Shown here piece after piece: positions 19,378-31,189 of a stretch of 64,000 nt of DNA. The notes under the pieces were generated by a model. The model made no database searches. It saw only the letters and a program-made list of their open reading frames with translations, and was not told where the DNA came from. The stretch spans positions 62,001 to 126,000 of the forward strand of contig NZ_JFHL01000021.1 of assembly GCF_003664995.1 (NCBI RefSeq), written 5' to 3'. The stretch comes from Mesotoga sp. BH458_6_3_2_1 (lineage in GTDB: Bacteria > Thermotogota > Thermotogae > Petrotogales > Kosmotogaceae). The first letter of the stretch is position 1; each line of letters begins with the position of its first letter. The translations under genes were made by a program, and so were the position numbers.

Positions 19378-20277
19378 TTAAGTAGTAACGTTTAGTATTT
19401 CTTCCCTATCGAATTCTCTGGCAACGGCAAGCGCCCTTCCTCTGTACCAGATGGAAGATCTCCCCTGCGCCCTGTCTCTGCCGACAATTCCAATAGCCAT
19501 TGAATTTACGAGATAGCGAATCTTCTCTCTACCTGACGATGCCTTGATCGGCCCGTCACGAAACCATGTCCTCTCCTGCGTCGAGTCACTCAGTCTTCCC
19601 TTCCACAAGGCAAAGTTGCATGATGGGACAAGAACTGTATCACAGCCCGCGGCATCCAGTTTCTCTATTTCGCTATGAAAGAACATGTCGTAACAGATTG
19701 CAATACCAATCACTCCTATCTCCGTGTGCACGACGTTATGTTCTTGTTCCCCTCTGGAGAAGATAATGGAACTCTCGGCCTCAGTGAGATTGTGTTTTAA
19801 AGCCCTCGCTACAACCTTTCCCGAAGGGTTGTAGAAGTAGGCGAGGTTGTAGAGCTTGCCGTTCCGGATGAATCTCCCTTTTTCCGATTCAGTGTCGACA
19901 ACCGGCAGCAGGATCGAAGGCGCTAGAAGATAAGTACCGAACTCCTTTGCAATGCCTTCGAAGACATCATGATAGTAGGCTTCAATCTCAAGAGCATCTT
20001 TCAGAAAGGCCTTCTTGAAGGGATTGAAAGAAAGCCCCATATTCTTGATCGCATATTTGACAAGAGTCTTTGCCGTCGTCTCCTCAAAGCTCAGCTTCCT
20101 GAAGGATGGGTAGAGAAAGGTCGCAAAAAACTCCGGGAAGACCACAATGTGGTTCCTTCCCTTCCATGTCAGAGAGGCCTCGGCTATATAGTCCCTCATC
20201 TTTCTGCGAAATACCTCTTCTCCAAATGAATCCTGATCGAACCAGACCTGTATTGCAGTAAGATCAGTGTCTTTCAT
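19378..20277 (-). CDS. Carbon-nitrogen hydrolase (nitrilase superfamily)
   Basis: A 299-residue nitrilase-fold hydrolase with the Glu-Lys-Cys triad visible: FPEF near residue 48, ALKHNLTEAE near 166, and AICYDMFFHSEI near 200. It would cleave an amide or carbamoyl C-N bond in the cytoplasm. The ATG overlaps the stop of the upstream small membrane gene (ATGA at 20274-20277), so translation is coupled. The natural substrate cannot be inferred. Confidence 0.88.
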   Translation of the reverse strand: MKDTDLTAIQVWFDQDSFGEEVFRRKMRDYIAEASLTWKGRNHIVVFPEFFATFLYPSFRKLSFEETTAKTLVKYAIKNMGLSFNPFKKAFLKDALEIEAYYHDVFEGIAKEFGTYLLAPSILLPVVDTESEKGRFIRNGKLYNLAYFYNPSGKVVARALKHNLTEAESSIIFSRGEQEHNVVHTEIGVIGIAICYDMFFHSEIEKLDAAGCDTVLVPSCNFALWKGRLSDSTQERTWFRDGPIKASSGREKIRYLVNSMAIGIVGRDRAQGRSSIWYRGRALAVAREFDREEILNVTT

Positions 20278-20474
20278 GACGCGAGCTTAACAATGATCAG
20301 AATTAGACCAATAACCAATAAGATCGGCAGGAAAACAACTACCAGACCTGCTATTGCAAATATTACTATCATTATCACTCCCACGCCGGCCACAATCATT
20401 ATCAACGCAGGGAAGAACCTAATCGCAAGATAAAGCAGGAACAATGCGCCGACGATGGCTAGAAAAGTGTTCAA
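20274..20474 (-). CDS. Small two-helix membrane protein, unknown function
   Basis: A 66-residue, almost wholly hydrophobic protein with two or three membrane spans separated by short glycine turns (FFPALIMIVAGVGV and VVVFLPILLVIG). The chosen start is TTG 20474, seven bases after GGAGG; a GTG at 20492 would place the ribosome site inside the gene. Its stop overlaps the start of the nitrilase-family gene, so the two are coupled and it may anchor or regulate that enzyme. No family was recognised. Confidence 0.65.
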   Translation of the reverse strand: MNTFLAIVGALFLLYLAIRFFPALIMIVAGVGVIMIVIFAIAGLVVVFLPILLVIGLILIIVKLAS

Positions 20475-20498
20475 GAGATCACCTCCGTTCACTGGTCA

Positions 20499-20527
20499 TT
20501 GACAGTATAACGCATAGACTATATAAT
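20499..20527 (+). promoter_or_regulatory. Perfect-consensus sigma-A promoter of the antiporter gene
   Basis: TTGACA (20499-20504), a 17-base spacer, then TATAAT (20522-20527). Both hexamers and the spacing are ideal. Transcription should begin near 20534, giving a leader of about 100 bases before the ATG at 20635. Such a strong promoter ahead of a transporter suggests that control acts after initiation. Confidence 0.85.
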
Positions 20528-20550
20528 TCTCTAGGCAATGAAGCTTGCCT

Positions 20551-20630
20551 TGGAGAACAGTCCTCCAGAACCGCCACCAGCTGATAGCTTCTACCAAATT
20601 CGCAGTCTGGTTCTGCTTGACTCTGGAGGA
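20551..20630 (+). promoter_or_regulatory. Antiporter leader with mutually exclusive pairings that can hide the ribosome site
   Basis: Bases 20561-20569 (TCCTCCAGA) are perfectly complementary to 20622-20630 (TCTGGAGGA), which contains the GGAGG ribosome site. Two competing pairings free that site: TGGAG 20551-20555 with CTCCA 20563-20567, and CAGAACC 20566-20572 with GGTTCTG 20609-20615. The layout is that of a translational switch. No known riboswitch class was recognised. The pairings are seen; the regulatory role is inferred. Confidence 0.55.
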
Positions 20631-20634
20631 ACAT

Positions 20635-21804
20635 ATGATTCTAAGCATCTCCCTTATAGTGATTCTCTCGATCGCAGTACTTTCACTCTTTGAAAGAGTT
20701 CGTCTTCCCGGTCTTATAGGCCTGGTATCGCTTGGAATAGCTTTGGGACCCGGTGTAATGAATCTAATCGACGAATCATTGCTCTCAATTTCCGATGAAG
20801 TCCGGCTGCTAGCACTAATAGTCATACTTATGCGAGCCGGTCTCGGATTGAACCGGAGAATTATCAAGAAGATAGGGCCCCCGGCTCTTCGTCTTAGTTT
20901 TCTTCCCGGTCTCTTCGAAGGTTTCTCAATCATGGTAGTGGCTCACTTCCTGCTGAATCTCAGCCTCATTCAAGGCGGAATGCTAGGCTTCATAATTGCG
21001 GCGGTGTCGCCTGCGGTAGTAGTTCCCGAGATGCTAAGACTGAAAGAAAGGGACTTCGGAAAGAGAAATGAAATACCTTCTACAATTCTAGCGGCAGCTT
21101 CAATAGACGACGTCGTGGCCATTACACTCTTTACAGTGTTTTTGGGAATTGAAGGAGGACAGGACGTCAGTATCGGAATGTCCTTTCTTATGGTGCCAGT
21201 AGAGATTATTCTCGGCATATCTCTTGGCGCGATAATTGGGTTCCTCTTCAGCTTGCTGTTCAAGAGATTCCATATTAGGGACACTAAGAAGGTTCTCTTG
21301 ATCCTATCTGTTGCATTCGTTTTCCATAAACTCGAGGAAGTACTCCCGGTAGCAACTCTCCTGGGAGTGATGGCGATAGGTTTTGTACTTAGAGAGAGAC
21401 TTCCGGTAGCCGCCGACAGGATTGCGGGGAAGATGGAGCGAATCTGGGTTGTCGCAGAAATATTCTTATTCGTTCTGGTTGGCGCAAGTGTTAACGTAAG
21501 TGCGATAGGCGACTCATGGCTTATGGGACTGCTCGTAATTCTACTTGGACTCATATTTAGAAGCGCAGGAGTTCTGGCGGCCACTCTCGGTTCGAAACTG
21601 GATATCCGCGAAAGACTCTTCTGCATGATTTCCTATCTGCCCAAAGCCACTGTTCAAGCGGCGGTAGGAGGAATTCCCCTTGCCATGGGAGTCGCTTATG
21701 GAGATGTAATACTTTCAGTATCAGTTCTTTCGATTCTGGCAACGGCTCCTCTTGGTGCCATTGGCATAAGACTTGCTGCAAGAAGATTCTCGAAAGGCAG
21801 TTGA
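20635..21804 (+). CDS. Cation/proton antiporter (CPA family)
   Basis: A 389-residue polytopic membrane protein with about 12 hydrophobic segments. The pattern is that of monovalent cation:proton antiporters: VRLPGLIGLVSLGIALGP near the N terminus, AAASIDDVVAITLFTVFLG with the paired acidic residues of the transport site, and ISYLPKATVQAA with a conserved lysine late in the protein. The start is ATG 20635, just after GGAGGAACAT; a longer reading frame upstream overlaps the leader and is not supported. Na+ or K+ specificity cannot be told. Promoter and leader are described separately. Confidence 0.88.
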   Translation: MILSISLIVILSIAVLSLFERVRLPGLIGLVSLGIALGPGVMNLIDESLLSISDEVRLLALIVILMRAGLGLNRRIIKKIGPPALRLSFLPGLFEGFSIMVVAHFLLNLSLIQGGMLGFIIAAVSPAVVVPEMLRLKERDFGKRNEIPSTILAAASIDDVVAITLFTVFLGIEGGQDVSIGMSFLMVPVEIILGISLGAIIGFLFSLLFKRFHIRDTKKVLLILSVAFVFHKLEEVLPVATLLGVMAIGFVLRERLPVAADRIAGKMERIWVVAEIFLFVLVGASVNVSAIGDSWLMGLLVILLGLIFRSAGVLAATLGSKLDIRERLFCMISYLPKATVQAAVGGIPLAMGVAYGDVILSVSVLSILATAPLGAIGIRLAARRFSKGS

Positions 21805-30921: not shown

Positions 30922-31189
30922 ACACCATGCATCCTTAATCGACAGTGACAACCTGGCCGTATTTGCCATCCGGCTCAGACTGAGCGCCCCCACGGCACAC
31001 GAGAGTGCTCGCTTATGGCTGCTTCCTCCCGGATCTGACCAGGTTCGCAAGTTCCCGTTGCGCAGGACTCAATCCTCAACACCTTCAGACAAACCGACAC
31101 CAAACCGGCAAAGCCTCAAAAGGCATTCGGCCCCGCGTGTGGCGGATTTCGGGTACAGGGAACCGCCAGCTCCCCGCCTAGCATGGTGT
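30922..31189 (-). ncRNA. ffs: Signal recognition particle RNA, large bacterial type with Alu domain
   Basis: Read on the minus strand, the RNA starts ACACCATGCTAGGCGGGGAG and contains the conserved domain IV hairpin GTCAGATCCGGGAGGAAGCA preceded by CCTGCGCAACGGGAAC. The 3' end, GGATGCATGGTGT, closes the molecule by pairing with the 5' ACACCATGC. At 268 bases with the 5' Alu-type region it is the long form known from Bacillus and Thermotoga. A T-rich stretch follows the 3' end. A promoter at 31196-31224 predicts a start at the structural 5' end. Confidence 0.95.

What the first reader, a model, noticed from the sequence alone, without database searches (positions are those of the whole stretch)
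20499..20640. Antiporter leader with switch-like pairing that sequesters its ribosome site
A perfect TTGACA-N17-TATAAT promoter makes a leader of about 100 bases. In it a nine-base anti-SD (20561-20569) exactly complements the SD region (20622-20630). Two other pairings, 20551-20555 with 20563-20567 and 20566-20572 with 20609-20615, compete for the same bases and would free the SD. This is the design of a translational riboswitch or thermosensor on a cation/proton antiporter. It does not match a class known to me.
Basis: partly seen in the sequence, partly recalled or inferred. Interest (0 to 1): 0.6.

Follow-up and report, generated by a model that had tools for sequence, protein, structure and literature searches.

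The report
Fluoride riboswitch with built-in ribosome-site lock
The stretch before this ion-pump gene is a fluoride-sensing RNA switch of a known class, but in this group of bacteria it seems to work in an unusual way: an extra hairpin inside the sensor carries the strand that hides the ribosome's landing site.

Summary
Rfam places a fluoride (crcB) riboswitch, RF01734, at 20525-20600 (38.6 bits, cut-off 34). P1, the pseudoknot and core residues are kept.

The nine-base anti-SD sits in a 16-base insert between P1 and the AACCGC junction: a hairpin whose 5' arm (UGGAG) mimics the SD and whose 3' arm can pair with the mimic or the real SD. The leader precedes an NHA2-like Na+/H+ antiporter in 9 of 10 genomes of the genus, Mesotoga.

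In 53 other genomes the antiporter also follows an RF01734 leader; 40 of the 53 have an insert at the same place. All 53 have a T-run (terminator-like); 0 of 9 Mesotoga leaders do. So the genus appears to have exchanged terminator for translational control, reusing the insert. At equilibrium the OFF fold wins by about 11-22 kcal/mol in six of seven leaders, so switching would have to be kinetic. Ligand binding and function are inferred, not shown.

Unexpected: of 63 genomes (10 of the genus, 53 others) none has a Fluc gene over cut-off.

The parts
20499..20527 (+). sigma-70-type promoter, TTGACA-N17-TATAAT; start predicted about 20533-20535, so the transcript begins at P1 of the aptamer
   Evidence: region conserved in the genus alignment
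20525..20600 (+). fluoride (crcB) riboswitch aptamer match, RF01734
   Evidence: 38.6 bits, gathering 34, model 1-64 of 64
20534..20549 (+). aptamer stem P1 (20534-20537 with 20546-20549) and its loop; loop bases 20540-20545 are the 5' strand of the pseudoknot
20550..20568 (+). inserted hairpin between P1 and the AACCGC junction; 5' arm UGGAG 20551-20555 mimics the SD
   Evidence: alignment (16-base insert), (stem of 5; 88.6% of 35 cells paired in 7 leaders)
20561..20569 (+). anti-SD strand (shared by insert hairpin and SD helix)
20569..20581 (+). conserved junction AACC and short stem P2 (20573-20574 with 20580-20581)
20586..20591 (+). 3' strand of the aptamer pseudoknot (pairs with 20540-20545)
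   Evidence: not conserved
20622..20630 (+). Shine-Dalgarno region TCTGGAGGA
20635..21804 (+). NHA2/CPA2-like Na+/H+ antiporter gene (389 aa)
   Evidence: PF00999 E 2.5e-43; best solved relative sodium/hydrogen exchanger 9B2; DD at 158-159 and K337 in 58 of 58

Best explanation
It is a fluoride riboswitch that turns on translation of an NHA2-like Na+/H+ antiporter. As the RNA leaves the polymerase, the aptamer (P1, inserted hairpin, P2, pseudoknot) forms first. With fluoride (and Mg2+) bound, the docked aptamer keeps the anti-SD strand inside the inserted hairpin, paired to the SD mimic UGGAG, and the real SD is free. Without fluoride the aptamer opens and the anti-SD strand pairs with the SD (OFF). 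Shown by sequence: aptamer identity, the insert, the exact anti-SD, its conservation in the genus, and the absence of the terminator-like T-run that other antiporter leaders have. Inferred: that this copy binds fluoride, the direction of the switch, and kinetic (cotranscriptional) control.
For: RF01734 over its gathering score. Core residues A6, U7, G8, U38, A40, U41, C47, U48 present in 9 of 9 genus leaders; pseudoknot pair 13-42 changes type compatibly (U-A here; U-G, C-G and U-A elsewhere) in a class-wide set of 143 leaders in which 840 of 858 pseudoknot cells pair (shuffled mean 738, maximum 755). Anti-SD in the insert in the seven leaders compared (exact in 4, imperfect in 3). 53 of 53 non-Mesotoga antiporter leaders have a T-run before the start, 0 of 9 Mesotoga leaders do. 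Inserts in 40 of those 53 leaders form a stem (39 of 40 with 3 or more pairs; mean 4.35 against 2.64 shuffled), so a hairpin there is compatible with the aptamer. Leader and gene are absent together in G031; the leader is altered or truncated beside two disrupted antiporters, G028 and G029. Translational fluoride riboswitches exist elsewhere (PMC13273304, passages).
Against: Nearest-neighbour folding makes OFF about 11-22 kcal/mol better than the ligand-ready fold without pseudoknot in six of seven leaders (the seventh figure, G023 -1.4, came from a wrongly chosen helix, and the G026 helix was partly wrong). The pseudoknot duplex adds only about -3.4, so fluoride could hardly flip it at equilibrium. 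Even with P1, P2 and the pseudoknot bases held, the model still pairs the SD, so exclusion depends on the insert hairpin and on tertiary structure that was not modelled. No two-sided changes in the anti-SD helix among the 7 genus leaders. P2 has only two clear pairs here. The third disrupted antiporter (G030) still has an intact-looking leader. No probing or expression data.
Confidence: 0.78

Rival explanations
1. The leader is a fluoride riboswitch, but the switch acts mainly on transcription (or on RNA decay), and the anti-SD is secondary or accidental.
For: Terminator-like T-runs are the rule in the antiporter relatives (53 of 53). A 9-base complement arises in 0.7% of shuffles.
Against: No terminator-like site on the + strand in 20300-20700 and no T-run in 9 of 9 genus leaders; the anti-SD register is conserved in seven leaders.
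Confidence: 0.12
2. An RNA thermosensor or constitutive weak leader: the SD helix melts with heat, and the aptamer is a relic.
For: Strong SD sequestration predicted in six of seven leaders (mean unpaired probability of the SD 0.004 or less; 0.2 in G023).
Against: The aptamer core is invariant in 9 of 9 genus leaders; a relic would drift.
Confidence: 0.04
3. A Na+/Li+ or pH riboswitch such as those on nhaA genes.
For: The gene is a Na+/H+ antiporter.
Against: Only RF01734 matched 20480-20700 up to E 1 among 4227 Rfam families.
Confidence: 0.02

Closest known systems
Fluoride (crcB) riboswitch, Rfam RF01734
   Same: P1, AACCGC junction, P2, pseudoknot, core residues, position in the 5' leader; antiporters are a known target (PMC11139923, section 13 read: after exporters, Na+/H+ antiporters are the next-most common riboswitch-associated genes).
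   Different: 16-base hairpin insert between P1 and the junction; A instead of the commoner G at position 42 (A in 27 of 143 leaders); anti-SD inside the aptamer.
Thermotoga petrophila fluoride riboswitch (crystal-structure aptamer)
   Same: Same core. L023 has the coordinates that PMC13273304 gives for it (1794817-1794880; passages), which anchors the comparison.
   Different: No insert (2-base joint in L023); terminator control reported (PMC13273304, passages).
Translational fluoride riboswitches of Burkholderia pseudomallei and Pseudomonas syringae
   Same: Control of translation, as named in PMC13273304 (passages).
   Different: Where their SD-pairing strand lies was not in the passages read; their drawings are in supplements that were not open to me. 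So whether they differ in this respect is unknown.
Sodium/hydrogen exchanger 9B2 (NHA2), 7b4l
   Same: Best solved relative of the gene product (E 1.2e-39); DD motif aligned.
   Different: The window protein is bacterial, 389 aa, and under a fluoride switch.

Membership tests
Fluoride riboswitch RF01734 | Covariance-model score over gathering threshold | tested here: met
   38.6 against 34 bits
Fluoride riboswitch RF01734 | Pseudoknot between P1 loop and 3' strand | tested here: met
   six pairs 20540-20545 with 20586-20591, all standard; 100% of 42 cells in 7 leaders
Fluoride riboswitch RF01734 | Conserved core around the Mg2+/F- site (A6 U7 G8 U38 A40 U41 C47 U48; roles and numbering recalled) | tested here: met
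   all present in the window and in 9 of 9 genus leaders; position 42 is A, not G
Fluoride riboswitch RF01734 | Binds fluoride | not testable with these tools
   needs in-line probing or calorimetry
Translational expression platform | SD sequestered by an anti-SD | tested here: met
   exact 9-base helix in the window; anti-SD strand shared with the insert hairpin
Translational expression platform | Ligand-bound aptamer withholds the anti-SD | tested here: inconclusive
   the insert hairpin competes for the strand, but with P1, P2 and pseudoknot bases held the model still pairs the SD
Transcriptional expression platform | Intrinsic terminator before the gene | tested here: not met
   none on the + strand; no T-run in 9 of 9
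NhaA-type Na+/Li+ riboswitches | Match to an Rfam model | tested here: not met
   no match but RF01734 up to E 1
CPA2/NHA2-like antiporter | PF00999 family, DD motif, conserved lysine (catalytic roles recalled) | tested here: met
   transported ion and stoichiometry not tested

The most novel reading that the evidence does not exclude
In many bacteria this fluoride-controlled NHA2-type antiporter stands in for the dedicated fluoride exporters: a third bacterial solution to fluoride. It would either expel fluoride itself or, more in keeping with its intact DD/K motif, let protons in and so collapse the pH gradient that makes HF accumulate. Support: none of 10 genus genomes has a Fluc or any CLC match. 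Of 53 other genomes with a fluoride-riboswitch antiporter, none has a Fluc over cut-off (one has a sub-threshold fragment with a stop) and 35 have no CLC match. One CLC carries all three CLC-F signatures (G528) and seven more genomes have partly matching ones. A review reports an exporter in more than 85% of surveyed bacterial genomes (PMC11139923, section 11 read). Not controlled for: kinship, incomplete genomes, and the rate in the same families.
Probability: 0.3. Interest if true: 0.75.

Novelty: new variant of a known kind. Interest (0 to 1): 0.45.

Why it matters
It would show how one aptamer changes its output, from terminator to SD lock, by turning a hairpin already inserted in the sensor into the regulatory strand, with relatives in both states for comparison. 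It also gives an easily tested case of a genus in which the only gene found under a fluoride riboswitch is a Na+/H+ antiporter and neither known exporter family is found, which makes the poorly explained link between fluoride switches and antiporters testable.

Tried and rejected
Considered and rejected: nhaA-type ion riboswitch and unknown class; the third pairing as a switch element (not conserved); equilibrium switching (energies); chance anti-SD (0.7% of shuffles alone, but conserved in register). Led nowhere: covariation of the anti-SD helix inside the genus (no two-sided changes); an automatic pick of the OFF helix took a wrong helix in G023 and a partly wrong one in G026, so the G023 figure is not used and the G026 one is rough; the fixed-column pseudoknot count for G028 is disturbed by two extra loop bases. 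The tree joins Mesotoga antiporters to six insert-bearing Bacillota ones with weak support (91/63), so inheritance of the insert by transfer is only suggested.

Selection behind the counts: 143 RF01734 leaders = 9 Mesotoga-genus, 6 Bacillota found through the antiporter, 70 top-scoring (30 Thermotogota, 40; 2 of the 70 could not be parsed) and 58 picked by match length of 70 or more (35, whose list was cut, 22 from the longer list of such matches, 1). The insert/antiporter association (34 of 53 with insert, 13 of 73 without; Fisher p 1.2e-7) uses only the last two sets and ignores kinship. One antiporter row (L159) was dropped from the tree as too short, and three disrupted genus antiporters (L061-L063) were left out of it. 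Five of the 81 non-antiporter loci gave no usable reading frame and were left out of the Pfam count of 76. Three CLC proteins were first read in the wrong frame and re-read; a fragmentary CLC in G203 was not fetched. The T-run test (five or more T between aptamer and start) is a crude stand-in for a terminator.

Full report
Observation. The SD complement of nine bases is modestly unlikely by chance: 133 of 20,000 dinucleotide shuffles, 14 of 3746 window stretches, 2 of 40 SD-bearing window genes including this one.

Identity. A scan of the window with all 4227 Rfam families gives two matches over threshold: a bacterial large SRP RNA at 30925-31186 and the fluoride riboswitch at 20525-20600. 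The alignment covers the whole model and shows one insert of 16 bases between P1 and the AACCGC junction. P1 is 20534-20537/20546-20549, the pseudoknot 20540-20545/20586-20591, P2 20573-20574/20580-20581. Residues around the fluoride site are kept in 9 of 9 genus leaders (structural numbering recalled, anchored on L023, whose coordinates equal those given for T. petrophila in PMC13273304, passages). Position 42 is A, matched by U at 13, so the pair is kept.

Gene. The product is a PF00999 antiporter. Its best solved relative is sodium/hydrogen exchanger 9B2. D158, D159 and K337 are present in 58 of 58 antiporters that follow a fluoride riboswitch here (three disrupted genus copies and one short row were left out), so it looks like a working cation/proton antiporter.

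Conservation. 9 of 10 genomes of the genus have the riboswitch and, in the same 9, the antiporter; G031 has neither. In G028, G029 and G030 the antiporter has stops or is in pieces. G028 has an altered P1 loop and -35 box, and in G029 the SD and gene start are missing (my reading); the G030 leader looks intact.

The switch. The anti-SD strand is the 3' arm of the inserted hairpin; its 5' arm UGGAG copies the core of the SD. On the alignment of seven leaders (G028 and G029 left out), the ON helices pair in 96.6% of 119 cells and the anti-SD helix in 80.5% of 77. Neither shows two-sided changes, because the strands hardly vary. Leaders that lose pairs at one end of the SD helix (G023, G026, G027) gain the two pairs at the other end. 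Energies favour OFF strongly; control would therefore have to be kinetic, with the aptamer formed before the SD is made. This is inference.

Relatives. Six Bacillota-like loci found by the protein alone (41-45% identity) all have RF01734 just upstream with an insert at the same place. Across 143 collected leaders (selection told under Tried and rejected), antiporters follow 34 of 53 sampled insert-bearing leaders against 13 of 73 without insert. Of 62 antiporter leaders, the 53 outside Mesotoga all have a T-run of five or more between aptamer and start, and 0 of 9 in Mesotoga do (a crude test of a terminator). The nearest family member with an intact orthologue, G018 (51% identity), has no insert and a T-run. 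The antiporter tree puts Mesotoga in one fully supported group, weakly next to insert-bearing Bacillota. The insert thus probably came first and was reused as the anti-SD, but an independent gain is not excluded.

Known context. Antiporters are the most common class of fluoride-riboswitch gene after exporters (PMC11139923, section 13), and translational fluoride riboswitches have been used as controls (PMC13273304, passages). Searches of the held library for fluoride riboswitch with antiporter (25 listed), Shine-Dalgarno (12 listed), Mesotoga (none), expression platform (44 found, 20 listed) and ribosome binding site (24 found, 15 listed), for the crcB motif (9 listed), for crcB with riboswitch, antiporter and translation initiation (3 listed), for fluoride exporter with antiporter and CrcB (14 listed) and for Mesotoga with fluoride (3 listed) gave no title or abstract start describing an anti-SD inside this aptamer. 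I read passages of eight papers and two sections of one of them, and no supplements; Baker 2012 was not held. So absence from print is not shown.

Exporters. None of the 10 genus genomes has a Fluc (PF02537) or CLC (PF00654) match; the controls rang in 10 and 12 of 14. Of the 53 other antiporter genomes, 0 have a Fluc over cut-off and 18 have a CLC, one of them (G528) with all three CLC-F signatures and seven more (G693, G177, G108, G106, G769, G104, G552) with partly matching ones. By contrast, among 76 other genes behind fluoride riboswitches in my sample, 20 are CrcB and 6 CLC. No background for the same families was measured, genomes are related, and several are incomplete.

Verdict. A member of a known riboswitch class with an apparently unusual placement of the expression platform; function inferred, not shown.

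Noticed in passing
G000 and genus genomes; genomes of L049-L175: Genomes with a fluoride-riboswitch antiporter lack Fluc over cut-off (0 of 53 outside the genus, 0 of 10 in it), and most lack CLC; suggests that the antiporter replaces dedicated fluoride exporters.
   Followed up: partly
L049-L054, L116, L119-L175: A hairpin insert between P1 and the AACCGC junction is common in Bacillota fluoride riboswitches, some with GNRA-like loops; Rfam's model treats it as an insertion.
   Followed up: partly
L061, L062, L063 (G028, G029, G030): The antiporter is disrupted in three genus genomes while the riboswitch is still recognisable; in G029 the SD and gene start are missing.
   Followed up: partly
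fluoride-riboswitch loci, alignment A1: DUF6062 (17 of 76) and dynamin-like GTPases (7 of 76) are frequent among the non-antiporter genes downstream of fluoride riboswitches in this sample.
   Followed up: no
window 20274-20492, - strand: Gene for a 72-aa hydrophobic protein, divergent from the antiporter, GTG start; no Pfam match.
   Followed up: no
window about 30856, - strand: A second window gene with a nine-base complement to its SD region, near the SRP RNA at 30925-31186.
   Followed up: no
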